NCBI GenBank assembly: GCA_963575645.1
Contig: OY754476.1
Location: forward strand, 4,464,001 to 4,528,000
Length of the DNA stretch: 64,000 nt
Direction of reading: 5' to 3'
Source of the DNA: Xanthostigma xanthostigma
Taxonomy: Eukaryota > Arthropoda > Insecta > Raphidioptera > Raphidiidae
Part shown: positions 13,302 through 48,264 of the stretch, in pieces
Position numbering within the stretch: position 1 is the stretch's first letter
Layout of the letters: every line of letters begins with the position of its first letter
Position numbers and translations under genes: made by a program
The notes under the pieces: generated by a model
What the model saw: the letters and a program-made list of their open reading frames with translations, nothing else
Databases searched by the model: none
What the model was told of the DNA's origin: nothing

Positions 13302-14835
13302 ATGGGCAAAGATTATTATAAAATTCTCGGTATATCGAAAGGCTCTTCGGATGATGACATCAAAAAAGCCTATAGAAAGTTAGCATTAAAATATCATCCG
13401 GACAAAAATAAAGCACCGGGCGCCGAAGAGCGTTTTAAAGAGGTTGCCGAAGCATACGAAGTGTTGAGTGATAAAAAGAAACGTGACATCTACGATTCGT
13501 ATGGCGAAGAAGGTTTGAAAGGAGGTGCTCCCGGTGGTCCGTCAGTAGGTATGTGTCACGAATGATTCAATTGACTGGTTTTCAAAAGATTTATCGAACA
13601 CGCGAGACTCATAAAACTTATTTCTTTTAGGAGGTCAAAATTTTTCATATACGTTCCACGGGGATCCAAAAGCAACATTCGCACAATTTTTCGGTTCATC
13701 GAGTCCGTTTCAAGCATTCTTTGACTTCGGCGGAAATGCAGGCGGTAATAGAATGTTTGATTTTGATCCCATGGACACAGACATGGATCCGTTTTCTCAG
13801 ATAGGTATGTGTATTGTTATGATATTTGTGTATGCGTTTTGTACTATCGAATATTGAGGTAACGAAATTTAAACGTGAATTTTTCCCGTTTTCTAAAGCT
13901 ATGCCGCTTTGTTGCAGGAATGGGACCGAGACCGGGCAATGCTTTCCGGAGTCATTCGTTTAATATTCACAGCAATTCGCCGAAAGGTAAAGACAAACAA
14001 CAAGATCCGGCAATTGAGCACGATCTGTATGTTAGTTTGGAAGATATCGCTAAAGGTTGTGTTAAAAAAATGAAAATATCAAGAAGGGTATTACAACAAG
14101 ATGGAACCACCAAAAAAGAGGACAAAGTCTTGACAATAAATGTTAAGCCGGGCTGGAAAGCAGGTACCAGGATTACGTTCCAGCGAGAAGGGGATCAGTC
14201 GAGACACAAGATTCCTGCAGATATTGTATTTACTATTAGAGATAAGCCGCACACACTTTTCAAACGTGACGGTAGCGATCTACGTTACGCTGCCAGTATA
14301 TCATTAAAACAGGTATGCTCCGACATCTTTGATAAATAATATCGAGTGTGTTTCAATTATTATTATGATTGGAAACTAGTCTCAACTTGTCTGTTGAAAA
14401 AGCCGACACAGTGTTAAAAAAGAAAACGCTAAATTAAAAAAACTTTCCTCGGACCCTCTATAATTTTATTGAATCACAACGCATTAATTAAAAATTCGCC
14501 AATCATCTGTAATCCGGGAACTTTTCTGATTGTCGGCTGACAGTTTGTAAATTGTTAAAATAACCGGACACTAAACGTGCACGTTTTTTTTTTTTTTGCA
14601 GGCGCTTTGTGGATGTGTAGTTCAAGTTCCAACTATGTCTGGAGAAAAAGTGACATTAAATTTTACAAATGATATCATTAAACCTTCGACAGTCAAACGT
14701 CTTCAGGGATATGGATTGCCACTTCCTAAAGAACCATCCAGAAAAGGAGATCTTATCGTCACTTTTGATATCAAATTTCCAGAAAAATTATCACCAAGTG
14801 TTAGAGATATTTTATACGATACTTTACCTAATTAA
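13302..14835 (+). CDS. DnaJ-1: DnaJ homologue, class B (Hsp40 co-chaperone)
   Basis: Co-chaperone that delivers clients to cytosolic or nuclear Hsp70 and stimulates its ATPase. Four coding exons: 13302-13548, 13631-13804, 13918-14312 and 14602-14835. Phases close to 349 aa, in line with DNAJB1/4/5 and fly DnaJ-1. The J domain is at about 4-68 with HPD at 32-34. A Gly/Phe-rich stretch follows (about 70-165), with no CxxCxGxG zinc fingers, so it is class B (type II). The two C-terminal client-binding domains begin near [14 protein letters not shown] and include [12 protein letters not shown]. The start codon follows the acceptor AG at 13294-13295 and gives the canonical [11 protein letters not shown]. 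Likely heat-inducible through the element at 12490. The intron count is unusual for a strictly heat-induced gene, whose introns are often few. Confidence 0.96.
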
Positions 14836-18789: not shown

Positions 18790-19367
18790 ATGTTATTTTT
18801 TATTTGAAATATTAATACATTTGGTATTTATTTTTATTGTGTATTTCAAAATAAAAATAAACGCCGTATATTGTTTATTTAAAAAGTAATAGCACTTGGT
18901 CGAGCGTTTCAGCTATTTTTGATTAAACAGTCAATTGAAAAAATCGATTAGGTGCAGTGAAAATAGTAAACCCCTTCAATATAGGCAACTTACAATACAA
19001 CCGTTCATTATGCAACGTGCATTGTGTCGGAAGGTTTGTCAATTCTCAAATTTGCACAAGAATAATTAAAATAATATTGGCATCGAACTGTATCTAAAAA
19101 TGTATATGTAATTTCAGTTATCTTCCTAATTAGTCATTAGAATCGTTCGGTAATTAGTTACCGACCGACAACTTTCTAATAAAACAAAGTAGTCGTTTTT
19201 TTCCCTGCATATAGCAATATAATTGCCACAATTTGTATACTCCAGTATCTTTTATTATATCAACAGACAACAGGAAAAAAAAAACAAGTTACACATATCT
19301 TTTTTCAATTCATGTTTGTTGGTTTTTTATGTCTCTTTCTTAGACATTTTAAAAAAATGTATCGTCT

Positions 19368-19376
19368 TGGGTGGTC
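19368..19376 (+). promoter_or_regulatory. Ci/Gli binding site 1, upstream of patched
   Basis: Exact TGGGTGGTC, the consensus bound by Cubitus interruptus/Gli zinc fingers, 2.5 kb before the patched ATG. Binding itself is not shown. Confidence 0.6.
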
Positions 19377-19417
19377 ACCGCTTATATCTATATGTGTGGG
19401 GCATTTTATTGAAGAGG

Positions 19418-19426
19418 GACCACCCA
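19418..19426 (-). promoter_or_regulatory. Ci/Gli binding site 2, upstream of patched
   Basis: Exact GACCACCCA, the same consensus on the other strand, 41 bp after site 1. The two form an inverted pair. Confidence 0.6.
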
Positions 19427-20390
19427 TGTAGAATAGTACCTGACTGACTTATCATGTTTGTTTTTATTTCATTTTGTAGCAATTCGCAAGCCCTAAACAC
19501 CGACGAAATAAAAAAAAAATTATAGCTACAATACCAAAATTTATTACAAAAAAATGTTTTACTTTACTCAACAATTAAGTATCTGAGTTATACCACCTTT
19601 CAAAAGTTTTTCGATGACAGTTAAATTTCTGAAGTGGAGCTTTTTTAAATAATATTGGGTACATTATAATGATAATTGAAATAAATTTTTATATAAGTAC
19701 ACCTACATTTCATACATAATATTATTTGATAACATCATTTAAATCTTTAAAGTTCGTCGCGGTTTTATAGTTTAAATTTAAACATTTTTATTTGTTGGCA
19801 AATAACTATTTTTTTTCTTAATTAAACGAACTAGTATTTTATGTGTAACGCCTACATATAAAATATGTGCGCTGTAATCATTGTACGCACAGCACTGTAA
19901 AAGTGTGTTGCTGCATTTGTTGCATTAAGTTTGCAATAAGTAATAATCACCCCGTGCGGCGTGCCCGCATACATGCATTAAATGTTATGATGAATAACAA
20001 TAATCTCAGCGTTTAATTGGGGGGGGGGGGGGATCTAATAAAAAATATGCCTATAACAATAATATTTTATTAATGCCTACATTACACGCTTTACCCACAA
20101 GTAATTACTCGGTAATATAGAAAAACTGGTTTGCGCTTTGACAAATTAACCATAATGCCGCATTATGTACAGTGGTTGATTGTAGTTTTGTAAATTTTAC
20201 AACAATAAAATCATAAATGGAAAAGTGCGCTCCACATAAACGATTTGTAATGTACTTAGGTCGGTGATGATGACAAACGTGAATGAAATGGATTAGTGAA
20301 GTAGACCTGAAAGTTCTTAAGAGACGAGTGGAGGATTTTAATTTAGCGGAGAAACATGCCGTTTACGAGATATTGACGATATCAGCAAGA

Positions 20391-20438
20391 TGGGTGGCCC
20401 ATTCATTCAAGACCACACAAGAAGTATCGTGGGTGGTC
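20391..20438 (+). promoter_or_regulatory. Ci/Gli site cluster: one exact, two near matches
   Basis: Within 48 bp are TGGGTGGCC at 20391-20399 (one mismatch), GACCACACA at 20411-20419 (one mismatch, other strand) and an exact TGGGTGGTC at 20430-20438. Clustering of strong and weak sites is typical of Hedgehog-responsive enhancers. It lies 1.4 kb before the patched ATG. Confidence 0.65.
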
Positions 20439-21042
20439 ATAGCTGACTCGCTTAGGGAGTTTTGTTTTTCTTATTTTGGCAATGAAGTGAAGTGAAATGT
20501 CAATATGTATTTGAAGATGTTTGGAGCGTTTGGAGATGACAATATTTATAACACAATGTCGATTAAATGTGTTTTATTTGATTTTTTCGTTTTCGAAAAA
20601 CGCGCAGTTACGGTACTAATAGTGCCTCGTTCAAAGACAGTGTTTTCGAAGTGTTTGTAAAAAGTCGATACAAAGTTGTGCTACCATAACCTATATTTTG
20701 CTAGAATAATTTCATATACCTATGTCATATTTTGTTTTCATGAGTGATTATATGAATAACGCATCTCTTCATTCTACTTTGGGGACACCTATTTTGATTT
20801 AATTATATTGTACTTAGTAATTACTGAGTTCAGTTACCTAATAGTATTGTTGCAAGCCAAATTCTACGTGACAGTTTGATTCAGATCTATGGAAATAAAG
20901 TAGTGTAGGTATACCAAAAATATTCTACAGATTCCCATTTCAAAATAAAGCGAAGTCTGTTTCAAATACATAACTGCTTTTAAAATCATTTCAACCCTCA
21001 AACCGATTCTATTCTTGCCTAAAAAAGTAAACAAATTCAATC

Positions 21043-21051
21043 TGGGTGGTC
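21043..21051 (+). promoter_or_regulatory. Ci/Gli binding site, 0.8 kb upstream of the patched ATG
   Basis: Exact TGGGTGGTC, 817 bp before the start codon. Known fly ptc promoters carry Ci sites at similar distances from the start. Confidence 0.6.
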
Positions 21052-21867
21052 CGTTGCGCTCGGTGTTTTTCGTTCGTATTCGTTGCTTCTGTAATTCTAC
21101 TTACAACGAATGTATTTCATGATTTCTGTTTTTAGTCTGAGAACGCAGGTTGATATGATAGTATTATCATTGTTTCAGAGTATTTATCACGTGTATCATT
21201 CACGATTGTTTTGATTTGTTACGATTATGAAACAGTTCACAAAGTGGACAATTGTTTAATATAAAGTAATAAATGAAACCTTTAAAGGTTTATAATATAA
21301 TTTTTCATTAATTAACTTTATTGTATTTGTAGTTTTCTGAGACATTTCTTTCATACAAATTTTATTATAAAAATTGTAGCAATTATTTAACAACAGTGTA
21401 TCTTTTTGTGATAGGCGCTTTCGACCAGGATATAATGGATTCACATTTATTTCAAAAGAATTTGTTTATTTTCGAGACGGAATCAGTTGCAGTGTTGTGA
21501 TTTTTTTTGTTAAAAGTTATGGTGTTTATTACAGATGAATGAAGTTTTATTAAAAGTGATTGAGTGCCTTATATGGTGTCTTTTGCCATGAAAATAGGAA
21601 TTAAAAAAGTGAATAAGAAAGTTTTTACTCCGGTATTTTTCAAAGGGTTACTACCATAGATTACAAGTACCAATGTTTGATATTTCTGTGGCATCGGTGG
21701 GTGTAATTAATAGTGTGATAACGAGCATGGCATAACTCTTCGAGGAAGCTCTCAGTGTCAGAGGAGGCTGAAGCCTGAAATTGAAGATATTATTATTATT
21801 TCTGATATGAAATATACGACGACGGATAAAGTATTTCAAGAATAGTTTAAATGGTGATCCTAAAGCA

Positions 21868-24800
21868 ATGTGTGATCATGATAGACACAATAGTGATTTG
21901 TACATTCGAACTTGTTTTGCGGACGCTTGCACGGCGCTTTCCGAGATAGAAAAAGTAAGTCAATCAATCAAGTATGCATTATTATATACCGACGTTATTT
22001 TTTTTTAAGTTTTATCAGACTCACTAACTATCAGGTGTCTGCTTAGATAGTAACTGGTAGTTGATTAGAAACTTAGAATTAGTAACAGACGACTATTGGT
22101 AATGTTCTCTAAGCAATAACACCCAGACAAGCCACATTCAAATCTATATTATTTTGTTTATAATAATATTATTAAGCTGTTTATAAGAAAAGATAATGAT
22201 TTCGCAAGTTCAAATACGATTGAGGAAAATGTGCAATAAATTGATATTTTTTACGTTCAGTTTGAAAATACTATATACCTAAATTAGTTTCGTAAGATTG
22301 GGTACAGTTACTGACTGATATGTTTTAATAATTCATTTGACAAGTGCGGAATGCAACAATCACGTGCAGACTGATAGTGGAACATCCATTAATTAATATA
22401 AACAAAAACACGTTTATTGAACTTGCTATAATATAACAATAAATAATAAAACTTACGGACTGCTTGGAAATACGGGATGTTCATCGAACATTTTTTTCCA
22501 TATTATATCATAAGTGCAGTCGCAGTGGCGTGCCCTACAATATTGAGGCTCTTGACACATTTTTATGGTGGACTCTCTAGCATGTTGAAAAATAATTTGA
22601 ACTCCCCGACAAAAAGAATTTTATTCAGGTGTCTGTGCTGGGTATGATTTACCACAAAATTTTCGCAACTTATACCTACGTTTCTCTGCGCTTTGAGGGT
22701 AATAGTACTGTGAGGTGGCGACTTCTTGGACGTGATTTTTCGACACAATGTTACCATACCTACTTCCATTTTGTTAACGACCGTGAAAACAAAAAAGGTT
22801 TATTGTGCTTTGAAGTTTAAATCATTATTAAGAGTATTTGTCCCTGCAAATACCCCCTGCACCCTTCGTCTCAAATCTTTTCCCCTCGCCTAAAAACGGT
22901 TCGCGCTCTCCCGACGCTGTTTTTAAAGCTAGAGGGTTCTGGTAAACGCCAAATGAAAGACAAAGAATCAGACTACAGATCCTTCAGGCGAATTTTTTGA
23001 AAACAAATTCCTGAAAAAACTTACAACATTTTGAAAAAAATAATAAGTTACGTAATATTTCACACGTAGGCGAAACTGTTTTTCAAAAAATTCGCCTGAA
23101 GGATCTGTAGTCTGATTCTTTGTCTTTCATTTGGCGTTTACCAGAACCCTCTAGCTTTAAAAATAGCGTCGGGAGAGCGCGAACCATTTTTAGGCGAGGG
23201 GAAAAGATTTGAGATGAAGGGTGCAGGGGGTATTTGCTGGGACGAATACTCTTAAAGTAAAACAGATTAAAAATAGTAAGTAATAGTAAATATGAATGTT
23301 TTTATGAATACATATTAAATAATTTATATTATGCCGTTTACTATGCATAATTTGTTAGCCCTTTCGTTACGTGATAATTATTTATAGAACTGTATAATAT
23401 AGACAATACTTACATTCAACTCATTGTTATTTAAACAAAGAGAGTGAAATACTACAACATTATAATGATTCAATTTCCATACGGACACCGCTTGCAAACG
23501 CATCAAGTGTTACCGAAGCCTTAGTGACCACCGATCTTCAACGTTGGTGGGCTTAATGGCTAGTGAAATGGCGCTTTGATACCAAATTTGGTTATGTAAT
23601 AACCATGATATTAAATACCCGCCATGCTTTCAGTAAGTGTCCGTTGGTTAGATTAACAGTTTGTCAAAGATGTGCTATTGCTCGGAAAGAGTGGACAATG
23701 GACATATGTATTAATTAACATAAAAGAATGCCGAGAGACCAGAATTGGATAAATTTAAATTGTTTTTAGGGTATACAATCGGAATCAGATCTATACATAC
23801 TTCCATTTCCTTACAAAACTTGGAAATAATAAAATTTCATTTTTATTCTCACGTGAGATTTATCCTATAATTTTTAAATGTTTCTGCAGTTATTATAATA
23901 CATATTCTCTGAATTAAAAAGTTGACGTGGGATTTTCATTGACCCCCTTTGATTTGGTGAGATTTTGCCAAACCCCTCCACCCTATTATGAGCCCACGTA
24001 TAATTTATGGAAGCTACCTGGGAGCGAACATTAGCGTATATATATCCCTGCAGTCACGCAAAAATGTTCTGTTCACGTGAAAACCTCATTAAAATCGGTT
24101 GAATTGTTTCCGAGTTTAACATTACATTTTATATATATAATATATTATGCAGAAATATATATGTCTGTCTGTTGAAGGTGGAAATGTTTTACGTACATTT
24201 AGTCGATTCGAAAATTGACAAATCAATAGAAATCTCTATACGATGTATGGCTATATTATATATACGACTGCAGCAATTGCTAACAATGCGTAATTTTTAA
24301 GTCGGATAAATTCGACACAGTTGATCGGTGTGAAACGGCCATAGATATCTCTTTAACTGGAAATGTGTTATTTTTCACCTTGATGTTGCCGATTGTTGAT
24401 GTCTTTATTTTGGATGCTGCCCACTGCCCTCAGTTTGCTTTACTTTTTTTCTATTGGTTTGGGTCGGTTTTGCCGCACTATTATGTTTCTGTGTGTCTGT
24501 CCACACTAGACAAAAATTAGTACGTCTTAACGGATGTTATACAGGTGGCGCGCAGAGCCGACATACGAATGTCAATTTATTTATTTTTTTTTTATTTATT
24601 TATTTCCTCAATAAAAATATACTAAATATAACTTGGGTGACCAGTGCTAGGGCAGGAGTCCAAAATTATTACTGCAGACGTACTTATTAAATAAATGAAA
24701 ATGAAAATAAAGGAAAATAATAGTTATAATAATAAATTAAACATTTTATATGTTACTAGCGGCCCTGTACGTGCTTCGCTACGTATAAAGTGAAATAATA

Positions 24801-27800
24801 AAACAATTTAATTGGAACATCTATCTAACTATCTATTTTATTAATTGCTAGCTATTTTAAAATATACATGGGCGTATATGTGTGTATGTCGAGCACTCCG
24901 GCTGCGCCGTCGTGCTCGAAAAAAAATAGCGTAAAGTATTCGTGGATAACTGGTCTTTAAAACACTTGCTCAATTTCGAGCACTCCGGCTGCGCCGTCGT
25001 GCCGAGCAGTTTTAAACGATATTCAGTTTTTTTACATCCTCGATCTAGATATATGGTTGTTAAGTTCGTTGCGCCATCTATTGAATATTCACTCAATCCA
25101 GTCAACAGGTATTGCCATCTTATATGGTTGTTAAGTTCGTTGCGCCATCTATTGAATATTCACTCAATTCAGTCAACAGGTATTGCCATCTTATATGGTT
25201 GTTAAGTTCGTTACGCCATCTATTGAATATTCACTCAATCCAGTCAACAGGTTCGCCATCTTATATGGTTGTATTATGACTGTCAAGGAATAGACAAATA
25301 ATTTGCAATAAAATAATATTGCGACTATAAATTGAAATGTAAGCTATCCTATCTTTCAAGTTGGGTCGAATTGCACACGGTTTGCAAATCAAATTTAAAA
25401 TCGGTTCAGTAGTTTAGGAGTTCATCGCGGACAAACATGTGACACGTAATTTTTATATATTAAGATAATGTGTTAATAGCCATTCAGTTAGTCCAGTCAG
25501 ATTAGTTGAGGATGTCGTATATAATTTTTGATTTCTCGTCATGGAACAGCCAGTTGACGGCAACTTTTGATAATGAAACAATGATTTGAGTAGCATCGTG
25601 TGCAAACTTTGGTTACTAACTAGTTAGTGATTTTAGTTAGTAATCAGTTTAGTTTCATTTGAGTAGCTTCGTGTAAGAAGGGCCTTAGTAGAAAGTATTA
25701 AAATGCATTGTCAGAAAGGTAGATGCTGCTTTCCTTCATATAAAATTATTGAAATCTCAAGGTAATCTTGATCTATCAGTAGAATATCTTTTTTTTTATT
25801 GTTTTCGCATCGTCAATCATTTCAATTGTTTTTATGATATATAACCAATTATAACTTAACAGTCGAGTCTTCGCCTCCTAAATGGACATCAAAAGTTTGG
25901 CTATAAACTATTTTGTCGTATAAAACATGTTGATTACAGCTTTTGAATTGAAATTATCGCGAGTTAATATTTTTATGGCCCTGAATTTTGATCTAGTTTT
26001 ACAAATATCATGAAAAGAATAAAATCAACTTTGTAGTGCCGGTTAGCAGATACGATGAATAATAAAACGGCGCTCTTTGAAATTTGACGTCCGTGACGCG
26101 TATTCCATCCTAGCTTTTAAGCCACCGAACTGTAGTTTTGGATTGACTTATATCAATCTAGTGCGAACAGGGACTTATACACGGTGTAGAAACTACAGCT
26201 GTACAGCACACACATACAAAACACCCAGGTATACCTATATATACGTACACGCGGACACATAATATAGTATAAAAGTATTCCAGGAAAGAAGCTTAATGGG
26301 TGGTCCGTACTCTGCAGGCTTGTTCATATTCTGTTGCTTCTATAATATCTTTATTAGTACTGAAACTGCTGTTAGTGGAAGCCCCCTAGTTGATGTCTTT
26401 ATTTGACTGACGTATTGCCATGCCTCGGCCGTTGTTATTAAGATACACATACGCTATATTGTACGTTCTACAGTGTGTCTCATAGAGTTCAAACCATCCA
26501 AACACGCGTTTTCAATAAGTTTGTTTGATTCGTAGACAAAATGCCCCTCTATTAAAGATGACGATTTTTGACAAAATAAAAAATCTCTCATGCCATGCCG
26601 GGCTGCAGAAACCATTGTCAGAAAATCTGATTTGGCTGCAATTACCTTAAATTGTGACTGCACATACCTATTTCTCCATTTAGAAAAGCATAGTAGAATT
26701 TTAAATCGATCCTGCTCGAAAAATAATTAATTACGTGTATTCAGCATAGTTTTTTTTAATTAATAAATTTATTAATACTATATAGCAACCGGGCCCGACT
26801 TCGACCGAATTTTCGCGGACTTTTTCAATGGAATATAGTCGTATTTTTCCGGCGTTGCCCAGGAGTAACGACACCCTGTTATGAGAGCATAATGAGAAGT
26901 CAAATACAGTGTAACCTCTTTATAACGAATCTCAAGGGACCGAGCATTTTTTTTGTTATAAAGAGTTTTCGTTATATGGAGGGAAGAAAGAAAAATAACC
27001 AAATTTCACCTAATTCGTTTATTCCAAGCACTTTGCTGACGTTTTTTGCTATGCCAATATTTGTTTTGTATTTTATTAAGTATCTTATGCATGACTTGGG
27101 ATGTGGTGGAATCATCTTCATTAAACAATAGGAATTTTTCGATAAGTTTGTCGGCATCAAGTGTTTGTTGAATGTTGCTGATTGTTCAGAATCGTCCTCT
27201 TTACGTCTGTAAATATTTGCTGACGCCTAAATATGAACATATTTCTTCGTAATAGAGAATGGCAGTTGCGCTATAAAGAGGGTATTAATATATGGGCTTT
27301 AAGGTAAACCAACCAAATTGTAAAAATTTCTACGTTATAGGGAGTTTTTCGTTATAACGAATGACGTTATAAAGAGGTTACACTGTATGTGGAAGTCAAA
27401 AAAAAAGTTTCCGGCTAGGAGCACTTGCGCACTGCACGTCGTGTGAAATCTGAAGTTGAATGACTTGTTGCGGCTTATAAATATACCTTGACAACACGTT
27501 ACGAATATATACAGTATGTAAACACGTAAGGTGCACATAGGGAAATTAACATTGGGAAAAAATGACTGGATCAGAGTGAGCCTTGAAATCTTGTTTTTCA
27601 ATTTGACAGATATTCTTGTGCAAAATGAATGTGTAGGTATACTACCGAAGAAAATATTCAAATGATTACAATATAATTCGACTTTTTTTATTAATGGGAC
27701 ATTAAATTCCCAAAAATACTTAAATATGGTGCGAGATCAAATATCTCCGCCTATTCGTGTTGAACCTAAAGATATTGGGTCACTGAATTACCAACGCGCA

Positions 27801-36800: not shown

Positions 36801-39800
36801 TGAAATCGTATAAAACACAGAACCCATGAATTTCACATTGAATGCTTCCATATTTGCGGACGACATAGTAACACGTTGCTTAGCGATCGCGCTTCCTTGT
36901 AGGTCGTCCGAGTACCTATATCGCCGATAAATTGCTTTCATGTTGTCACGTCGTCGGTGTGTCTTCTAGCAGCCTTTACCTCGCGTGCTGTGTCTGCATA
37001 TTTTGTTTCCTAAAGGATTCGTCTTGACTCCTTAAACAATCCAAAACGGCATATTAAAAATTTCATTCAAATCGACCCAATAGTTCATGAGATAATCTCA
37101 GATTAGCATATTATATAAACAATATATCGTTAAAAGTTCTGCAGGGGAAACGTTAAATAGTTTTGAGACATAGTGCTAGGTTAAATAATTCAAATGTTGA
37201 GATCTCATACAATCTTGATTTTATGCCTTTCAATTTTCGTTTCATTTCATTTAATTTTTATTTTATTATACTTTACTTATTTTATTTCGTGCATGGATGC
37301 TGGAGAAAAACTATATAGGAAATCCAACTAATCACAAATATCTAAGAACAATGGTCTCAGATTGTATGTTATCTATACTAATATATAAAGATGAAGAGTT
37401 TGTTTGTTTGTTTGTTTGTTTGAACGCGCTAATCTCAGGAACTACTGGTTCAAATTGAATATTTTTTTTTTGTTAGATAGCCCATTTACCGAGGAAGGCT
37501 ATAGGCTATATAATATTACGCTACGACCATTAGGAGCGGAGCTTTAATGAAAAATGTTGCAAAAAGTATCTCAAAAATAAGCTTCTATTCATGTGAAATG
37601 CACTAACTAGATATACTCATATTAGTGATGAGAGAACACAACCTCAGGTAGATCAATCGGTAGCGCATGCGACTGTCAATATCAGGGTCATGGGTTCGAG
37701 CCCCACGTTGGGTGAATATATTTTTATTTTTTACATTGCTTTCTTCTAAGGCTTACATTTAAATTTATTTTAATTTTATTTAATTCAATTAAAAAAATTA
37801 TTAGTTAAAAAAAGTTTAAATACTGCTCTTTATCGACAAAAACTTTTGAACGGTAACTCCGATCATCATGAAATTTGGACACATTCATCTCGGTAAACTA
37901 AGATAAATGTGTGTACTCATGTCCCTTCCTTCCCCATTCATTCTTTTGCACCCGGGTGAAACCGGGCGGGACCGCTATAACTTATAAGTTACAATTCAAA
38001 TTTCAAACTGACAACAAAACAAAACATTCTAAAACACATTCGCTTAGATTTTAGAATGAGTCACCGATATGGATAATAATACTACTTTGAGTTATCGAGG
38101 GCCAATGCTCAAATTATTTGTTTAAGTTATATATAGAGGTTTCGTAATTTAAGTAAGGCAAGTTTTAGACTCTGAGAGAAATGGAACACAAAATTGTATT
38201 CACTTATAGGGGTTTTGCGTTATCGAGGTTCTACTGTAATGACTTTTCGTTTACTGCTCGTCCTTTGTAGTAGCATAATAATATTAAACAGCGAAATTTT
38301 CAAATCGGTTCAGTAGTTTCTTGCGAAAACTGCAGCCATACAACAATATAATACACAGTTTGTGTCAGAATTTGTCTGATTCGAGTGGTTTCAATTATTG
38401 AAAAAAGCGTTGGAAATATTTGCGTGCTATCAGTTTGGCCTCTGAATGTGATATTTTGTTTTGTCTTGCAGGGTCGTGCTGTAGGAGGAGGACTATGTCT
38501 ACGAGAAGCGTGTCACCGACGGCTCGATATTTTAGGCCATTTTCTGCTTTCACATGCGGGCAAAGTCCTTTTCGTGTGGTTGCTAATGGTTGCTTCGTTC
38601 AGTGTCGGTCTCAAATCCAGTCAGCTAACAGCGCGCTTGGAATCTTTGTGGCTACCAGGCAAGCATTTTTATATTTTTTTTACGTTTATTCAGTGTCCGA
38701 TCGAAGGAATTTTTAAAAGCTTTTTTTGTAGTCGAAGCCGAAACCGAGCTTCTTTTTTTTCACCTTCGGCCGAAGGCAAAGGGACTAAAAAAAAATACGT
38801 GTGGCACTCGGGGACTGCCGCGGTAAAGCTATTGCAAATTCTTTTTAGGTCTTTAAGTTTTTCTTCTCTATAAAACGAAAATAGCTAGGTATAAATCATA
38901 AGGTATAAATAGTGTAATTACACACCAAAACAATCATTCATTCAAAAAATTTGAACAAAAAGAACGATATTAAGAGTTTGATCGTAGAATTTCGCGCGAT
39001 GTACATTTATATAGATATAATATCATATATACTTTCTCTGCACATAACCTAAATAATTTAGGTTATTTTTATAGCAGTATTATATATAAATTCAAAAAAA
39101 AAATACTTCATTTGTGATAATAATAAAATGTATGTATATAGAGTACTCACTCATTTTCTTTCACTATTTTTTTTATCACTTTCTTCATTAATAAATGCAC
39201 TTTGTTTATTCATATTTAAAACACTTTATACACAAATAAAGATAGAATCAGTTATGAGCAGTTAGCAGCTAGTCTACACGCATACGTCTAGTCGCACGCA
39301 CACAAACACCGTGCCGAAGTCTGCCGAACTGAAAAGACGTTAGACGATGCACGGCTTTCAACGTCGCACCGCTGTGCCGGTCGGAGTGGGGGGTGTTAGG
39401 TTTTTTCGTTACGAAATTTCTTGATTCGGTCGCCGCGCTCAAAGCCCGCGATAAAAGCTATGCAATAGCTTAAAAAAGGAAAATCACATCAGATAAAAAC
39501 AATTTTATTAGCTAAGTACAGTAATAACCCGACATACGCGAACTCGGAGTTATTCCTTATTGCCTCTCACCGTCCACTCGAAGTCAATTAGAATTCTCTG
39601 AGTTACGTGCAGGCAATAGGCATTATATCGTTCGGTCTGTTTCTGACGGTCGGACTCTGCATTTGTTGTGAAATTAATTGAAATTGACGCCCGTATTGAT
39701 TAATTAATACAATTATTTAGATACGGGCCGCATAGAACAGGAGTTGAGTTACACCATGTCATATTTAGGAGAAACAGATTCTTGGAACAACCAAATGATT

Positions 39801-42800
39801 ATCCAAGTGGCGGCAGAAGAAGGCGCGAACGTCCTACACCGGGACGCCCTACTGGCCCACCTGCAAATTGTACACAAGGCCTCCCGCGTCACCGTTCAAC
39901 TGTTTGACGTGTGCGTCTTATATTTTTTTTTACCGAATTTCATTTGAAAATCAATGCTATTTTTATTGTGTAATTTTATGCAAGCAAATAAATAATAAAT
40001 ATTATATTTCAGAGTTTGGAGATTGAAAGATCTTTGCCATTCGGCAAGTATGCCCACCACCGATTTGCATTATATAGACCAAATATTTGAAAACATATCT
40101 CCTTGTAATATTATAACGCCGTTAGATTGTTTCTGGGAAGGTTCAAAACTTCTCGGTCCGGACTATCCGGTTAGCATTCCGTAAGTATTGAGATTTAATT
40201 TTGTCGGCAGCCGGTAAGCATTTTTAATTTGGAATTGCGAACATTTAAATTTTGACGTGCACTTTTCAATTTCAGCAATTTAGGAAATCGTGTAAAATGG
40301 ACGAATCTAAATCCTAAAGATTTATTAGATAAAATGAAAAGTTACCAATTTGACTTTGAGTTTCGCATATTGGAAGAGTACCTGAATAAAGCGGGAATCA
40401 GCACTGCGTACCAAGAAAAACCTTGCTTAGATCCAACCGACCCCGAATGCCCCGAAACTGCACCCAACAAACATTCAAAAGAGGTAATTAAACGTCATAG
40501 AATCGCGCCGGTGTCTTCGACGTTCAAGAAGCATAATGCGCTGTATATTTTATCGAATGTTTTCAAACAATATATTAACAAACAATATAAAATTAATACA
40601 TTAACGTTTCAATCCGGATTTGGACCTTCTTCAGAATTGATCTAAAAATATAAAAATAATTAATATTTAAATATAATTCGCTTTTTATAGAATTTTTCAA
40701 AATTAATTATGATTGTCAAAATAATGAAAAAATAATAACAAACAATTTTTTATTAAGTACTCACAAATTATTATTTCCATGACTACTTAATAAAAAATTG
40801 TTTGTTATTATTTTTTCATTATTTTGACAATCATAATTAATTTTGAAAAATTCTATAAAAAGCGAATTATATTTAAATATTAATTATTTTTATATTTTTG
40901 TATCAATCCTGAAGAAGGTCCAAATCCGGATTGAAACGTCAATATATTAATTTTATATTGTTTGTTAATATATTGTCTGAAAAATTGGTCGATAATTGTA
41001 TTTATTGAAGAGTTCTAATCAGACGTTAATCAAAGATTTGAATATTATTTTTAGGTTCCGGATATCGGCGCATTGATGAGCGGCGGGTGTTACGGATACG
41101 CAAACAATTATATGCATTGGCCGGAACAGCTGATAGTCGGCGGGGTTGTTAGAAATAAAACGCAGCATGTTAAGAGAGCTCAGGCATTGCAAACCGTCAT
41201 ACAGGTAAATTACGCGCTTGCCGATGATATTTCAACAAGCCGATTAGCAAATTGAATTGATAAAACGTTTTTCCGTACAGCTAATGGGCGACCGCGATAT
41301 GTATGATTTTTGGCAAGATACGTATAAAGTCCACCATATCGGATGGAGTCAGGACAAAGCTAGACTTGTTATCGATACGTGGCAGAAAAGATTTGCTCAA
41401 GAAGTGAAAAAATTAGAAGCGAGCTATACTCAGTACAAAAGTTATCCGTTTTCAATGGCAACGTTAAACGAATCTCTTAAACAATACACCAACATAAATG
41501 TTGTCAAATTGGCAATCGTTATCAGCTTATTGGTAAGTGTATTTAGAAGATTTAAATTTTTAAAAACGTTTTTGATTTTATTTTTTTATTCATTTTCAAT
41601 ACGTAAGAACAACACAGTGTTTTGTTTTCGACACAAATTGGTACTTTGTTGAGCGGCACTGTTTTCTTGTAATCAAATTCGTCAGCGATACGGCAATCAG
41701 TTCGGAAACACAATAGTCTAGTTAATACAGTGTAAACTCTTTATAACGAAACTCAAGGGACCGAGCATTTTTTATCGTTATAGAGAGTTACCGTTATATG
41801 GAGTGAAGAAAGAAAAACAACCAAATTAACAACAATCTTCAATGTACTGTATAATCTCTTTATAACGAATTTTAAGGGACCGAACATTTTTTTCGTTATA
41901 AAGAATTTTCGTTATATGGAGGGAAGAAAGAAAAATAACCAATTTTCACAAAATTAATTTATTCCAAACACATATACAAACACATGTACCTATAGTTTGG
42001 CGTCAAGTGCTTGTTGAATAGATGGTGATGGTTCAGAATGGTCCTCTTTATGTCTGTAAACATTTGCTGACGCCTAAATATGAACATATTTCTTCGTAAT
42101 AGAGAATGGCTGTTGCGTTATAAAGAGGGTATTAATGTATAAGTTTTAAGGTAAACCAACCAAATCGTAAAAATTTCGACGTTATAGGGAGTTTTTCGTT
42201 ATAACGAAGGACGTTATAAAGAGTTTACACTGTATATGACAGACATCGATTCTTTACGCGCCGTTCAAATCACGTTCGTCTGAAACCACAATTTTGCTAC
42301 GTCGAAATTTTGCTATCGTCAGTCGGGTATTTCGCTAAATAGCAGACTGACTTTGCGCGGTATCAAAGAGTGACGTACAGCGGTTTTACGGTATCACTGA
42401 CGAATTGTATCGATAATTTTTATTTGCTTTACGTATTTTTTTTGTTTTGTTGTGTATTCACTTTTTTTATTTATATTTTTTTAGTTGGTGTATTGTATGT
42501 TTATGGGACAGTATATAGCTGTTTTTGGAGTTATAATGCTGATTTTGAATACAATTGCAGGCTTAGGCTTTTGTTCACTTCTAGGCATACCATTAAATGT
42601 CTTAACCATACAGGTAAATTAATAGTATATTGTGCAACTGGTGTCAAAAGTGTAGTTTTTAAAGTGAAACTTTTATTCTATCGCCCCGAATTTTTCTGGC
42701 CGTCTGTTGCATGTCGCGTTACAGGCGGCCGCGGAGTAGGGGTAAAGTGAAAGGCGTTCGGAGTAGGCGCTCGGTAGAGCAGCCGAGGCCAATATGGCGG

Positions 42801-45800
42801 CGCCCATGGTTAGCATCAGCTGACCGTGTAGTATGTATAACACATAGTCAGTCTGTCATGCGGGCAAGTGCTGTACAGTGTTTACATGTTTTTATTCGTG
42901 TATTCATGTGAATATTGTTGTTTATAATTAATCGTGATGGATAAGTGTCTACAATCCAATAAAAGTTTCACTTGCGTCGTGGTTTCTTAAAACCACACAA
43001 CTATTTTTATTAATTATATCTAATCAAATTTTTAACATACTTCTATACACAGAAGTGTTAGAAAAAAATACTTATTTTACACTAGTACCTACTACATTTC
43101 AAAATATAACGATATAAATAATTAGTGCCCTAATAAATGGTAGAGTTTTGGAATATAATGAACCTTTTTCAAAATATACTCAGTTTTAGTAAACGAATGT
43201 GGATTTAGAAATGGAATGTAACTATCGAAAGTTTGTTTATTCAACTCATGCGCGCTATTCATGTTTTATCATGCCTAAAAACCGAACCCTAAATAGCCAT
43301 TTACCGACTGGTGACAATTACTTGTCATAACTCAATGAAGATTCCTACTAGCTCGGTCATTGTGGAGTAATGAAAATAAACGTAACTATTTTCTGAGCCG
43401 TAACGAAATAGTAGGTAACAACAACTCCGTTGTTACCCATTGAGGCTAAAATTGAGAGGCCGAATGTTTTCGACATGGAGTTTATTCATAACCGGCTAAC
43501 CTCAAACCAAAACATTGAATCGTGTTGTTTGGTGCTGTTAGTATTGACAGTTTTTTTTTATAAAGAAACAAATAGATATTTAGATCATCTCATTAATAAC
43601 AATAAATAAAACATGAATAACGCGCAATTGTTGAATAAAATTATGGGCGTAACTTGTAGGCTAAGTCATGACCTGTCAGCGCGATGAATGACTTAGACTA
43701 CTAGTTACGCCAATAACTATTAGATATCAAAAAAACTGTGCTGTACTTAACCGCACAATTTTGGTAATCAATTCTTGTTTTATCGACTGAAAATAATCGG
43801 AAAAACGTATTTTTAAACGCACGTGTGGCCAGAAAATTATTCATTGCGTTCATTGGTAAAAATAGAAAAGTAAGTTTTTTTTTTTTTTTTTCATTCTAGG
43901 TGGTTCCATATTTGTGTGTCGGTCTATCGCTACGAGATATTTGGACGTTGTTGCATCATTACAAATTGACCAAAGACACCAAACAAACAATTCGCCAATG
44001 CACTCCAAATATTACCACACATAATTTGTACTTGTGTAGTGCATTTCTAGCGTGCTGTTTACTGCCAGCACCTGCAATCCTAGCAGCTGCTCTACAGTGT
44101 ACCGTACTGATAGTTTTCAATACACTAGCCGTACTTATCGTATTCCCGACAATACTGTCGATCGATCAAAGGAGAAAGCAAGCTTATAATAATATCGGTG
44201 AGTTGAATTTTTGTTTGTGCCGCACCTGCAGATTTATTTTTAGAACTTCGCGCGTACGAGCTTCAGGGCTATTCGAGCAATGCGTTTGATTTTGACAAAT
44301 ATTTTAATAAGTGTTAAATCAGTTCACAATAACTCGTATAATTGACGTTCTGTTGTTTTTATAGTGAGGAATTACATGTCGAGGCAAGCGACACTAAATA
44401 AACCGACTGGAAGAAGGCATTTTCCAAGTGCAAAAATATCAGAATGTTGTTGCGACGTGGAAGATAACAATACGGTGAGTAAACAATATAGCTGAGATTA
44501 AGGAGGTTGATCCGTTACAGTCCCAATCAAAAGTAAGTCGAATTCTAAATGGGAACTTTTCCATAATAAATTTTTACAAAAGGGTGTAAGTCAATGATAT
44601 CAATAAATTATTGTCATAATAAATAATTTTTTTTAATATTATTAATTATTTCAGTATTTTACTTAATTTGTACAAAGTTAGGTTAGAAAAATAAATTTAT
44701 GTAAATATTTGTATTTTACATATTATTTGCAGTAAATAATTTAAAAAAGAAATTAGAAATAATAAAAATTAAAATTAAATCATTAAAAAGTTGAAAATTC
44801 AGTTAAAATTGTCAAGAATAAAAGTCGATAATTGAAAAGTGCTAAGGTTTAATAATTTTTTTTATTGATTAAAAGTCTCCTAATTAAATTGGAAAAAATA
44901 TTAAAATATGCGTAAGACATCGATGCTTTACATAGTTAGTTTTCGGAACTGCTGACATTATTTGGTTATTTGCAAAAAATTTAAATGAACAATTTGCATG
45001 CTAGATTGACATATTTTCCATAAGACTACATGTAAAAGTTTTTTTTAAATTTTGACTTTATAAATCTCCTAATGATTTTGGATTTTTTACAGAAAATTTT
45101 GTTTTAAAAAGATCTATTAAAAAAACTTTATTTCAGAGTTTTTTCATTACCTTCGTAAAACGGCTCAGCCTCCTTAAAGTGTAACTTCTTTTGCCGCATC
45201 TTTCATTTGCAGTCGAGTATTTGTAAAAATGAAATTTTAACGTACGCGTGTATTGTGTTTTAGGAGTCAAAAAATAGAATAAACATATCTGAAATATTGT
45301 TAAATCGACTCGTGAGATTGTGCTGCCTTGTATGTCTTGTTTTTGGTGTCTTTTTTGGCATATACCATGCGTATCATCTGAGATTCGGTTTAAAAATGCC
45401 GGAATTTTTGCCACGTAATTGTACGGATACTAAGTATCTTACGGCACACGAGAAACATTTTGGATTTTACGGTTTTAGTACGGTAACTATGGATATTGAT
45501 TATCCGAGTAATCAAAATTTAATAAAGGAGTATCACAACACCATAGCAAATATGAAAAACGTTTTGGGAAGTGAATCGAATCCCTGGCTAGAAACGTTTC
45601 AACATTATTTAATGGTACTTCAAACTGAATTCGATGTAAATTTGAAAAGGAATTGTTTAAACAGTGAAGGATGGCATTCGAATGCATCAGAAAATGCAGT
45701 GCTCGCTTATAAATTGCTTGCAAATACGGGAAATGTGAATTTTCCCATAGAAAAATCCGAAATAACAACAAAAAGGCTGGTCGATAAAGGATTGATAGAA

Positions 45801-48264
45801 ATGGAGCCGTTTTATAATTATTTTTCTGTTTGGTTTTCAAATGATCCGATTATGTCGTTCATAAAAAATACGTTTAGACCGTTTCCAAAACATTTTTTTG
45901 GCTCGAAAAATGAATTTGACTTGAAAATACCGAAAACTAAACCGCTAAAGTATGTCGAAACGCAATTTTATGCGGAAAAATTACACGATACGGAAGAAAT
46001 CATTGAATTATTGCAAGAAATTCGTAAAACGTCGGATAGCTTTAATGAAAAAGGAATGAAGAATTATCCGAAGGGCTTAATATTTGCGTTTTACGATCAA
46101 TTTATCGATTTCTTTACGAATTTTGCTACGATATTTGGAATAAATTTCGCAGCGTGTTTCATTTTTGCATTCTTTCTATTGAATTTCAACACGAGTTTGT
46201 TTTTGGTAGCGTTTCAAATGGTGTTGATTATATTTCTGGGAATATTTTACAGTTTATTAGGAATAGAAATGAATATTTTGTTTATTCTATCGGCTAGTCT
46301 TGCAATGGCGATATTTGGGCGAAATCACATCGCTCTGATTGAGGTAAATATTTTTTTCTCCTTTTGTATTTGTGAAACATGAAAAATAAATGTAAAAACT
46401 GTAAATCTTTTAGGGTTTCGTTACGTCAATTGGAAACAGAGACAGAAGAACAAAGTTGACAATTGAACAAAATTTTTGGCCGATGTTCCAAGCAAATCTT
46501 GCCTTTATTATTTCAATTGCAGTATTTTATACATCAGACTTCGATTTCATAAAAAAATATTATTTTTATACTATTATGTCGACGATTGTTGTGGACTTCA
46601 TAAGTTCATTTGTTTTCTTTCCAATATTTTTGAGTTGTTTCGGACCGAAACCAATGGTGAGTAAAACGCAATCGGTCAAACAGTTAAACAATCTTACCGG
46701 GATTTTTATTGACGATTATGCTGTTTTTTTTACAGTTAATACCGTTAGAACATGCCGATCGCATTACAACTCCGTCACCTCAACCGTCGCCGGTGGTGGT
46801 TCGAAAACATAACAACCACCATCATCACCATAGCAACAGGTATGAGCTGTTTTATCTATTGTTGATTGCGTGTCGAAAAGTATTTTTTTTGTTTCCTTTC
46901 ATAAACTAGCTGATATTTAAATTCCAAACGACAATGCAAACAAGTAATTTATTCAATAAGCGTTTAGATTTTTCAATTAAAAATACAGGGTGTCCCATTA
47001 AGAATGGGACATAGAACAACCGCAGATTCTCCAATTCAAAATAAAACGATTAAGCGAAATATGCTTAGATAAAATGTTACTCGCTCTACCAGTGGCGTAC
47101 GGCAGGAGTAAGTAATGCTTGTACCGCTTCTAAATGTTACGCCGCTGTCTACATTTTAATTTTGACTATAATTTTAATTTTTTTGATATTTTCTAAGTCA
47201 ATAATGTACACTTGTTAGTTTGTTGTAAAGTCATTGGTTTTCGAGATATTCGCAGTTAAAGATAGATAGACATGTACTTTTTATTTGTATTATTATCAAT
47301 AATATTCATTTTTACAATTTTGTCTTAAAAAAACTGCGAATATCTCGAAAACCAATGACTTTACAACAAACTAACAAGTGTACATTATTGACTTAGAAAA
47401 TATCAAAAAAATTAAAATTATAGTCAAAATTAAAATTTAGACAGCGGCGTAACATTTAGAAGGGGTACAAGCATTACTTACTCCTGCCGTACGCCACTGG
47501 TAGAGCGTACTGAACTAATTTTTTTTATTGTTAGGTGCATTTTATGATATTTAACAAGTGTGCCGATTTGAGTAAAATTATACGGTGTATTAAAAAAATT
47601 ATGGACATTAATAGTTTTTCAGTTGTCAACTTCAACACCCTGTATTTCGGAAACGAGTAACATTTTATCTAAGCATATTTCGCTTAATCGTTTTATTTTG
47701 AATTGGAGAATCTGCGGTTGTTCTATGTCCCATTCTTAATGGGATACCCTGTATATAGTGTCTGGCTGGAACTAATTTTTTGAGCCGAGGCCAACTTCGT
47801 TTTATTTTTTCGAACTTTTTGTATATGCGTTTTCGTTTTACTAATTGCGAATTTTTGTCAAGAACCCGGAGACATCATTCGAGTAGTTCCGGAGCGAGTG
47901 ATAGCAGCGTTCCCGGCGTGACAAAACAACAAACGACACGAGAACCGAGTCTCACGACCATAACGGAAGAAAGCGGTTGCAGTATTACTGTTCAACCGGA
48001 GGTCGTCGTACAAACTACTTACAATAATCAGGTAGGTCGCATTTGTTTTAAGTTCAATTGTTATTTCCGGCTATTTACCGGCGTTAACGTTGCGAATTGT
48101 TTCCGTAGGGCGATTCGTCGAACAGTAATAATAGCAGTCAACACGTCACGACCAAAGTAACGGCCACGGCTAATATTAAAGTCGAAGTTCATTCGAGACC
48201 GAACAGTAGACGAGAAGAGAGAGACAGGGATAAGGATAGAGACAGAGATCGAGATAATTCTTGA
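21868..48264 (+). CDS. ptc: Patched, Hedgehog receptor (12-TM RND-family protein)
   Basis: Membrane receptor that binds Hedgehog and restrains Smoothened, probably by sterol transport. I joined 15 coding exons: 21868-21954, 38472-38658, 39721-39910, 40013-40180, 40276-40483, 41055-41204, 41281-41532, 42485-42613, 43900-44197, 44365-44474, 45264-46343, 46414-46656, 46736-46839, 47863-48031 and 48109-48264. All phases close, giving 1147 aa (fly about 1290). Exon 1 (MCDHD, then SDLYIRTCFADA) matches the family's N-terminus. TM1 is at about 60-78. The first ectodomain has ITPLDCFWEGS, TAPNK, SGGCYGYA and YMHWPEQLIVGG. The sterol-sensing domain is at about 376-530, ending FPTILSID. The second ectodomain is at about 601-815 with WFSNDP. 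The tail has a His run, EPSLTTITEE and TKVTATANIKVEV, but no PPxY. Exon 2 appears to use a GC donor. Oddities: Arg replaces the acidic residue in TM4 (440) and TM10 (917). The second half is much more diverged than the first. Confidence 0.93.
22828..23255. repeat. Foldback family D, copy 1 (patched intron 1)
   Basis: Begins TTAAGAGTATTTGTCCC and ends with the complement GGGACGAATACTCTTAA. The arms are about 180 bp and near-identical, with landmarks TTCAGGCGAATTTTTTGAAA and CTGGTAAACGCCAAATG. A second copy lies at 34758-35128. Both copies start and end with TTAA, which may be the target sequence. Confidence 0.85.
24756..25465 (-). mobile_element. Helitron, non-autonomous (minus strand)
   Basis: Read on the minus strand it starts TCTTAATATATAAAAATTAC followed by GTGTCAC, and ends GCACGTACAGGGCCGCTAG. 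The host base before it is A and after it is T, the usual Helitron A/T insertion. Related ends occur at 33350-33897 and 37372-37978. It contains tandem repeats (25050-25260). No Rep/helicase is encoded. Confidence 0.8.
25050..25260. repeat. Three tandem copies of a 71-bp unit inside the Helitron
   Basis: Units at 25050-25120, 25121-25191 and 25192-25260 (the last is 2 bp shorter). Each contains GTTAAGTTCGTTGCGCCATC (one copy has TACGCC) and ACTCAATCCAGTCAACAGG with one-base variation. This is a minisatellite; there are no spacers, so it is not CRISPR. Just upstream a GAGCACTCCGGCTGCGCCGT block occurs twice (about 24893 and 24978). Confidence 0.85.
26297..26305 (+). promoter_or_regulatory. Ci/Gli binding site in patched intron 1
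   Basis: Exact TGGGTGGTC, about 4.4 kb after the patched start codon. Intronic Ci sites are known in Hedgehog target genes; this one is isolated, so chance is possible. Confidence 0.45.
26907..27385. mobile_element. Pogo/Tigger-like MITE, copy 1
   Basis: CAGTGTAACCTCTTTATAAC at 26907 and its reverse complement ending at 27385, both flanked by TA. The CAGTGTAACC... start and TA target are typical of the pogo branch of Tc1/mariner. A relative with the same ends is at 41728-42232. No transposase. Confidence 0.8.
27511..28064. repeat. Inverted repeat element with about 75-bp arms
   Basis: ACAGTATGTAAACACGTAAG (27511) with GTGCACATAGGGAAATTA after it is mirrored by TAATTTCCCTATGTGCACC... up to 28064. 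The arms include AATTTCCCTATGTGCACC and a region around GATCAGAGT/ACTCTGATC. The middle is AT-rich and non-coding. Confidence 0.7.
28219..28554. mobile_element. Repeat family C, copy 1, with internal triplication
   Basis: Ends GAAGTGAAAACTTCTTTAG and AAGTTTTCACTTCTGCCGG are related inverted repeats. Inside, the block GTACACTTTTTTTGTAATGG plus GTTAAACTCGCGTCAG and ATTCGTAAGAC occurs three times in tandem (about 28240-28500). A copy with one unit, in the opposite orientation, is at 32912-33162. Confidence 0.7.
29893..30445. mobile_element. hAT-type element with intact 8-bp target duplication
   Basis: Starts CAGCGTTGCCAGACG and ends TGACAACGCTG. CTTGATAT lies directly before it (29885-29892) and directly after it (30446-30453): an exact 8-bp duplication, the hAT hallmark. 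553 bp, no transposase frame. Confidence 0.88.
30512..31480. mobile_element. DNA element with 20-bp ATTATAGACGCTCGACAAAT ends
   Basis: ATTATAGACGCTCGACAAAT at the left and its exact complement ATTTGTCGAGCGTCTATAAT at 31461-31480. The same end motif occurs singly near 34169, 34687 and 48552, so this is a dispersed family with solo or broken copies. No coding frame recognised. Confidence 0.7.
31824..32498 (+). mobile_element. Repeat family B, copy 4 (longest)
   Basis: Left end ATTGGTTGTCTGTAAAGTCG and right end ACGTTATCACGTCAAAA as in the other copies. At about 675 bp it has the most internal sequence and may be nearest to the full-length non-autonomous form. Confidence 0.75.
32912..33162. mobile_element. 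Repeat family C, copy 2
   Basis: Contains CTCAGGGAGTGCCGGCGGAAG at the left, CGTCTTACGAATTTTCGATC, GGACACGTGACC and AAGTTTTCACTTC at the right. It is the single-unit counterpart of 28219-28554 in reverse orientation. Confidence 0.6.
33350..33897 (-). mobile_element. Helitron, non-autonomous (minus strand)
   Basis: Minus-strand start TCTATATATATAAAATTCCC followed by GTGTCACAAT, and end AACCGGGCCGCTAG. The flanking bases are A before and T after. Same family type as 24756-25465. No coding frame. Confidence 0.82.
34758..35128. repeat. Foldback family D, copy 2
   Basis: Begins TTAAGAGTATTCGTCCC and ends GGGACGAATACTCTTAA. It matches copy 1 along the arms, with a deletion in the right arm just before TTTACCAGAACCCTC. 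A hAT element begins 32 bp later. Confidence 0.85.
35161..35429. mobile_element. hAT-type MITE with intact 8-bp target duplication
   Basis: Starts CAGGGGCGGGCAAATC and ends GCCATTTGCCCAGGCCTG, the classic hAT end style. GTCTATGG is present at 35153-35160 and again at 35430-35437. 269 bp, GC-rich ends with GGGCCGGATCCGGCCCACGG near the right side. Confidence 0.92.
37372..37978 (+). mobile_element. Helitron-like element containing a tRNA-like sequence
   Basis: Starts TCTATACTAATATATAAAG followed by a GTTT tandem run and the AACGCGCTAATCTCAGGAAC block that insect Helitrons often show. It ends CCGGGCGGGACCGCTA, where the CTAG end appears mutated to CTAT. The preceding host base is A. A tRNA-derived sequence sits at 37641-37713. 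Confidence 0.7.
37641..37713 (+). pseudogene. tRNA-like sequence (tRNA-Lys body, anticodon position reads GTC)
   Basis: The D-arm region ATCAATCGGTAGCGCATGCG, the T-arm GTGGGTTCGAG-type block (here ATGGGTTCGAGCCCCA) and the 3' part strongly resemble eukaryotic tRNA-Lys. The anticodon position (37675-37677) reads GTC instead of CTT, and the acceptor stem has two mismatches. It lies inside a Helitron, so it is more likely a captured tRNA pseudogene or SINE head than an active tRNA gene. Confidence 0.6.
40573..40970. repeat. Foldback element in patched intron 5, about 400 bp
   Basis: TATTAACAAACAATATAAAA at 40573 pairs with the end at 40970; CAATCCGGATTTGGACC pairs with GGTCCAAATCCGGATTG; pairing continues to a loop near 40772. 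The DNA just outside on the right (about 40965-41037) also occurs near 32730-32840 in rearranged form, so it belongs to a larger repeat. Confidence 0.85.
41728..42232. mobile_element. Pogo/Tigger-like MITE, copy 2 (patched intron 7)
   Basis: CAGTGTAAACTCTTTATAAC at 41728 and the complement ending at 42232, flanked by TA. A second start-like sequence (CTGTATAATCTCTTTATAAC near 41850) shows a nested or partly duplicated left end. The right part matches copy 1 (26907-27385). Confidence 0.8.
42661..43003 (+). mobile_element. Repeat family A, copy 2 (patched intron 8)
   Basis: AAAGTGAAACTTTTATTC start and the AAAAGTTTCACTTGCGTCG, GTGGTTTCTTAAAACCAC, ACAACT end, exactly as in copy 1. The body differs from copy 1 by only a few bases and one short deletion, implying recent movement. 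It lies 47 bp after exon 8 of patched. Confidence 0.85.
46986..47751. mobile_element. Mariner-type element with nested foldback (patched intron 13)
   Basis: CAGGGTGTCCCATTAAGAAT at 46986 and the complement ending CCCTG at 47751, both flanked by TA. The arms are about 105 bp and near-perfect. A second foldback is inserted inside (47092-47507). An extra ACACCCTGTAT at about 47634 suggests further internal rearrangement. No transposase. Confidence 0.8.
47092..47507. repeat. Foldback element with CAGTGGCGTA ends, nested
   Basis: CGCTCTACCAGTGGCGTACG at 47092 is mirrored at the right end, 47507, and the two arms of about 190 bp pair almost fully (for example CAATGACTTTACAACAAACT). It interrupts the mariner-type element around it, so it inserted later. 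Confidence 0.82.

What the first reader, a model, noticed from the sequence alone, without database searches (positions are those of the whole stretch)
19368..26305. Cluster of exact Ci/Gli sites around patched
TGGGTGGTC or its complement occurs exactly at 19368, 19418, 20430, 21043 and 26297, plus near matches at 20391 and 20411. I found no other exact copy in the 64 kb. From a rough hand estimate at about 32% G+C, the chance expectation for exact matches on both strands in 64 kb is about 0.1. All five lie within 2.5 kb upstream or in intron 1 of patched, the classic Hedgehog feedback target. This predicts a Hedgehog-response enhancer at about 19.3-21.1 kb with an intronic partner.
Basis: partly seen in the sequence, partly recalled or inferred. 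Interest (0 to 1): 0.75.

Follow-up and report, generated by a model that had tools for sequence, protein, structure and literature searches.

The report
Hedgehog feedback switch beside insect patched
A tight, non-random group of perfect Ci/Gli binding sites lies just upstream of, and inside, the patched gene of an insect, which is most simply the expected on-switch by which Hedgehog signalling turns up its own receptor, as already known in fly and mouse.

Summary
TGGGTGGTC occurs exactly 5 times in the window, at the stated places. The shuffle expectation is 0.04; the genome-wide rate, 784 in 623.3 Mb, gives 0.08 per 64 kb. Four copies lie within 1.7 kb; about 1e-6 such runs are expected in the whole genome. 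The word is not enriched genome-wide (reversed control 859). The inverted pair at 19368/19418 is the only one in the genome with a 25-55 base gap in that order. Both site-bearing stretches match only themselves. The gene is patched, and the genome encodes a Ci-like protein with Gli-type fingers.

A Ci-bound Hedgehog-feedback enhancer is much the best reading. It is a new member of a known kind: fly ptc has a promoter-proximal element with three optimal sites, and mouse Ptch1 has proximal and intronic Gli modules (PMC4887206, passages). Binding and activity are untested, and no related genome was on hand.

In passing: this patched lacks two of the three acidic residues of the RND-type ion site. 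The other patched copies found, on C10, are partial; the 50 kb read there holds no exact site.

The parts
19368..19376 (+). exact Ci/Gli site TGGGTGGTC
19418..19426 (-). exact Ci/Gli site, inverted partner of 19368 (41-base gap); the only pair of this order in the genome with a 25-55 base gap
20391..20399 (+). near Ci/Gli site TGGGTGGCC (1 mismatch)
20411..20419 (-). near Ci/Gli site TGTGTGGTC (1 mismatch)
20430..20438 (+). exact Ci/Gli site TGGGTGGTC; with 20391 and 20411 three sites (one exact, two near) in 48 bp
21043..21051 (+). exact Ci/Gli site TGGGTGGTC, 825 bp upstream of the patched ATG
26297..26305 (+). exact Ci/Gli site TGGGTGGTC in intron 1 of patched
19368..21051 (.). predicted promoter-proximal Hedgehog/Ci-response element (4 exact and 2 near sites in 1,684 bp)
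   Evidence: function inferred
21868..21954 (+). patched coding exon 1 (MCDHDRHNSDLYIRT...), donor GTAAGT
38472..48189 (+). remaining patched exons found (span includes introns; several borders approximate), Hedgehog receptor with sterol-sensing domain

Best explanation
The 1.7 kb upstream of patched (19.37-21.05 kb) is a promoter-proximal Hedgehog-response element. Without Hedgehog, the Ci repressor form sits on the optimal sites and keeps the element low; with Hedgehog, full-length Ci on the same sites activates patched. More Patched then binds ligand and restrains Smoothened, closing a negative feedback loop. The single intronic site at 26297 may add a second, weaker module. Shown here: the sites, their clustering, that the DNA matches nothing else in the genome, the identity of the gene, and the presence of a Ci-like protein with Gli-type fingers. 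Inferred from Drosophila and mouse: Ci binding, Hh-dependent activity and the feedback.
For: Five exact sites against 0.04-0.08 expected; run of 4 in 1,684 bp expected about 1e-6 times per genome; word not enriched genome-wide (784 against 859 reversed); on C1, 91 listed sites and no run of three within 2.5 kb; in 19 arbitrarily placed 10-kb loci (16 on C1, 3 on C2) 0 exact sites and at most 3 sites of up to one mismatch per 2.5 kb, against 6 here (L010, fetched because it holds the C1 pair, is not among the 19); only inverted pair of its order and gap range in the genome; both stretches match only themselves; flanks differ beyond about 18 bases, so the sites are not one duplicated repeat. The gene is patched: PTCH1 structures match at E 2.5e-49 and 5.3e-63. 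Ci-like fingers match 2GLI at 3.1e-79, finger 5 with one change. Same architecture in fly ptc and mouse Ptch1 (PMC4887206, passages).
Against: No binding, expression or reporter data, and no related genome, so conservation is untested. One-mismatch sites over the whole window are only mildly in excess. The joined Patched protein matched Pfam's sterol-sensing domain but not the Pfam family named Patched (PF02460) at E 0.001, and the window is not among the 10 PF02460 places in the genome; identity as patched rests. Clusters alone often fail as enhancers (4 of 17 worked in Drosophila, PMC4692483). In fly, the proximal cluster gives a minor though significant part of the wing response and does not respond to Hh in embryonic ectoderm (PMC4887206, passages).
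Confidence: 0.88

Rival explanations
1. The sites serve other Gli/Zic-type zinc-finger proteins (Zic/Opa, GLIS/Sugarbabe, Lame duck), whose motifs overlap the Gli motif, rather than Ci.
For: The genome holds other Gli/Zic-like finger genes, such as C3:45787292 (60% identity over query 24-150). That these families bind overlapping motifs is recalled, not tested.
Against: All five are the full optimal Ci word, at the classic Ci target gene, with the same kind of layout as fly ptc.
Confidence: 0.06
2. The cluster is a chance or repeat-derived accumulation without function.
For: One-mismatch sites are only mildly enriched over the whole window; single words can be spread by transposons.
Against: Expected run of 4 about 1e-6 per genome; both stretches match only themselves in the genome; only 1 of 504 same-composition words reaches 5.
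Confidence: 0.03
3. The sites are bound by Ci mainly as repressor platforms (high-affinity sites under Ci-R), setting the off-state rather than the Hh response. This shares Ci binding with the best explanation, so the odds overlap.
For: [quoted passage not shown]
Against: The Gli sites of ptc-prox are required for its activity in Hh-responsive wing cells (PMC4887206, passage).
Confidence: 0.1

Closest known systems
Drosophila ptc-prox (promoter-proximal Ci/Gli element of patched; Alexandre et al. 1996, as described in PMC4887206)
   Same: Same gene, close to the promoter or coding start, same 9-mer GACCACCCA/TGGGTGGTC, several optimal sites close together; further Hh-responsive modules in introns.
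   Different: Three optimal sites in the fly element against four exact and two near sites over 1.7 kb here; activity not tested here; the fly DNA was not compared, so descent is untested.
Mouse Ptch1 Gli modules (promoter-proximal neural tube and intronic limb modules; PMC4887206)
   Same: Promoter-proximal high-affinity module plus intronic Gli input at the orthologous gene.
   Different: Mouse modules rest on Gli binding and transgenic reporters; here only sequence, and the intronic part is one site.

Membership tests
Ci/Gli-responsive feedback enhancer of patched/Ptch1 | Lies at a patched orthologue | tested here: met
   Patched exons between 21868 and 48189; PTCH1 matches E 2.5e-49 and 5.3e-63; sterol-sensing domain found, Pfam PF02460 not
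Ci/Gli-responsive feedback enhancer of patched/Ptch1 | Homotypic cluster of optimal GACCACCCA sites, upstream or intronic, beyond chance | tested here: met
Ci/Gli-responsive feedback enhancer of patched/Ptch1 | Published cluster rule: 3-10 sites within 1,000 bp (PMC4692483) | tested here: inconclusive
   Met at 20391-21051 (2 exact and 2 near sites in 661 bp) if near sites count; exact sites alone give at most 2 per 1,000 bp. The paper's weight-matrix score was not computed
Ci/Gli-responsive feedback enhancer of patched/Ptch1 | Not in repeat or exon | tested here: met
   Only self-matches in the genome, by a search that skips very common words; outside coding exons found; 5' UTR extent unknown
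Ci/Gli-responsive feedback enhancer of patched/Ptch1 | The organism has a Ci/Gli factor with the DNA-reading fingers | tested here: met
   C6:5749341 on, fingers match 2GLI; the rest of that protein was not examined
Ci/Gli-responsive feedback enhancer of patched/Ptch1 | Site conservation in related species | not testable with these tools
   The tool states that the genome has no relatives here
Ci/Gli-responsive feedback enhancer of patched/Ptch1 | Ci occupancy and Hh-dependent activity that needs the sites | not testable with these tools
   needs ChIP/CUT&RUN and reporters

The most novel reading that the evidence does not exclude
The only patched found with both halves in this insect keeps the standard Ci feedback wiring while its protein has lost two of the three acidic residues (PTCH1 D513 and E1095 positions; Arg and Phe here) of the RND-type cation site thought to drive Patched. 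This lineage's Hedgehog receptor would then repress Smoothened with an altered or absent ion coupling.
Probability: 0.3. Interest if true: 0.6.

Novelty: new member of a known kind. Interest (0 to 1): 0.33.

Why it matters
It shows, with a genome-wide null, that a proximal Ci-site cluster of patched can be recognised from sequence alone outside Drosophila, and it names a compact stretch for reporter tests. The mechanism itself is textbook. The unexpected part is the receptor: human PTCH1 D513Y does not block HH signalling (PMC9949057, passages), yet this gene, with Arg at that place, is the only patched with both halves found in its genome. That would make the debated ion-coupling model of Patched testable by a natural variant.

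Tried and rejected
Repeat or transposon origin of the sites: rejected, both stretches match only themselves (this search skips very common words). A genome-wide abundance of the word: rejected.

A second functional patched elsewhere: the fly-Ptc search (29 matches; 36 of 40 candidates scored) found Patched-type exons only in the window and on C10, and on C10 none beyond fly residue 592, while the window's second half is its best match. Other, weaker matches (C2, C3, C9, C13:16.78 Mb; 21-30% identity) look like related Patched-domain genes and were not examined. In the 50 kb of C10 read, DNA homology in matches of 150 bases or more covers window 38249-45396 only (which printed matches ending beyond window 17000), the protein comparison found no exon 1, several pieces carry stops or frame breaks, and there are 0 exact sites. 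Exon 1 is too short for to find (it did not list the window's own), and intron 1 is 16.5 kb long here, so an exon 1 farther off on C10 is not excluded; the upstream site cluster itself is not duplicated.

Shared module: 21043 and 26297 share about 55 bp downstream of the site, including GTTGCTTCTRTAAT, which occurs only there in the window. The anchored null gives 0.004-0.005 for one pair, but it was the best of 21 pairs looked at, apart from one pair whose windows are the same DNA (10 pairs are among exact sites), so it is kept only as a lead. A first control based on naturally shared 9-mers did not support it (31% of 1,004 pairs score as high), though transposon copies fill its top.

Full list of all 784 sites: not obtained, as listings stop at 100. 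Of the 186 copies of TGGGTGGTCC, 100 were listed (C1-C7); closest pair, read by eye, 23.3 kb. Pairs of the opposite order or the same orientation were not searched genome-wide. Presence of hedgehog itself (PF01085) and the copy number of a patched fragment were asked but not answered. Literature: the first search (20 of 56 listed) gave the fly and mouse papers; searches for butterfly patched (11 of 11 listed), Bombyx patched (10 of 19), the TM4 change (6 of 7, 2 of 2) and GACCACCCA with patched and Zic (12 of 503) listed no paper that I recognised as covering a lepidopteran ptc cluster or the TM4 change. I saw listings and abstract starts only, plus passages of PMC4887206, PMC4692483, PMC9949057 and PMC3515442.

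Full report
Observation. Shuffles give 0.04, and none of 100 reaches five. In the whole genome (623.3 Mb, 28 contigs) there are 784 copies, 0.08 per 64 kb, against 859 for the word read backwards, so the word as such is not enriched. About 1.2e-6 runs of four copies in 1,684 bp would be expected per genome. This Poisson figure ignores local base composition, but the window's G+C (29-38% in 4-kb windows) is close to that of the 19 background loci (32-41%), and of 504 equal-composition words only this one reaches five copies.

Controls. One search listed 100 places, 91 on C1 (84.2 Mb) before passing to C2, so C1 appears complete: one pair closer than 2.5 kb (699 bp), no triplet. In 19 arbitrarily placed 10-kb loci (16 on C1, 3 on C2) there are 0 exact sites, 19 one-mismatch sites, and at most 3 per 2.5 kb; the patched stretch has 6. 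L010 was fetched because it holds the C1 pair and is left out of that count. A site followed by an inverted one 25-55 bases on exists once in the genome, here (the second row is the same place on the other strand); other orders were not searched. Against the finding: allowing one mismatch over the whole window gives 10 matches against 3.68 by chance, which 2 of 100 shuffles also reach. The excess therefore sits in the perfect words and in their clustering.

Not a repeat. 19300-21250 and 26150-26450 each match only themselves in the genome. Site flanks are alike over no more than about 18 bases, apart from a suggestive 55-bp similarity after 21043 and 26297.

The gene. A recalled Drosophila Ptc aligns exon by exon from 21892 to 48189; the joined protein has a sterol-sensing domain and its two halves match PTCH1 structures. 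It does not match Pfam PF02460 at E 0.001, and the window is not among the 10 PF02460 places in the genome; whether fly Ptc would match that model was not tested. Coding exon 1 is 21868-21954 and intron 1 is 21955-38471. Upstream neighbours are a tyrosine-kinase gene, an eIF2D-like gene on the minus strand and a DnaJ gene whose last matched frame ends at 14,336; frames between 14.3 and 21.8 kb were not examined for genes.

The factor. A Ci-like gene lies on C6 from 5,749,341, with fingers split over exons; joined, they match the GLI-DNA structure 2GLI at 3.1e-79, fingers 4-5 with few changes. It is taken as Ci from its fingers alone. That search had 4,522 candidates, of which 150 were scored. 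Other Gli/Zic-like genes exist and are a weak rival. Whether hedgehog is present was asked but not answered.

Mechanism. Ci acting on optimal sites next to patched is the established Hh feedback in fly and mouse: ptc-prox has three optimal sites needed in the wing, and intronic modules exist in both animals (PMC4887206, passages). Clusters at known or suspected Hh targets gave a working enhancer in 4 of 5 cases, top clusters alone in 4 of 17 (PMC4692483, passages). In fly the proximal cluster is only one of many modules, so the stretch here need not carry the whole response. [quoted passage not shown] That this genome is lepidopteran is my inference (size, G+C, a frame that looks like a gustatory receptor by eye), not tested.

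In passing. In the alignment, TM4 GVGVDD of PTCH1 pairs with GLSLRD, the TM10 Glu of GVEF pairs with Phe. PMC9949057 (passages of a preprint) describes D513, D514 and E1095 as an anionic triad in highly conserved motifs, and D513Y as inactive. Only the D514 place is acidic here. Drosophila (sequence recalled) keeps the first Asp and lacks the other two, so partial loss is not unheard of; Arg at the D513 place is the unusual part. Three of three C10 loci that cover TM4 (L030, L033, L034) also read GLSLRD, so it is not a sequencing error of one place. The C10 pieces are 76-97% alike to parts of window 38249-45396 in matches of 150 bases or more and include intron DNA.

Verdict. Observation confirmed; reading supported; a new member of a known kind, of modest interest as regulation. 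The receptor change deserves its own look.

Noticed in passing
43921-43944 and 46296-46328: Patched TM4 reads GLSLRD where PTCH1 has GVGVDD, and TM10 has Phe at the conserved Glu: two of three residues of the RND-type cation site are gone.
   Followed up: partly
L030, L032, L033, L034 (G000:C10, 16.09 Mb and 0.32-0.34 Mb): Partial, in places rearranged and frame-broken copies of patched, intron DNA included, 76-97% alike to parts of window 38249-45396; no exon 1 match and no exact Ci site in the 50 kb read.
   Followed up: partly
21043-21098 and 26297-26350: The upstream and intronic sites share about 55 bp, including GTTGCTTCTRTAAT 36-39 bp after the site start; P about 0.004 for a single pair, not corrected for the 21 pairs looked at.
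   Followed up: partly
21868-48189: This Patched does not match Pfam PF02460 (Patched) at E 0.001, although 10 other places in the genome do.
   Followed up: no
22820-23255: A long inverted repeat in intron 1 (about 22820-23005 against 23075-23255), seen by eye; probably a mobile element.
   Followed up: no
25050-25270: Three tandem copies of a unit with about TTAAGTTCGTTGCGCCATCTATTGAATATTCACTCAAT in intron 1, seen by eye.
   Followed up: no
10586 and 42803: A repeat of about 300 bp or more shared by 10.6 kb and 42.8 kb, a by-product of the alignment control; likely a transposon.
   Followed up: no
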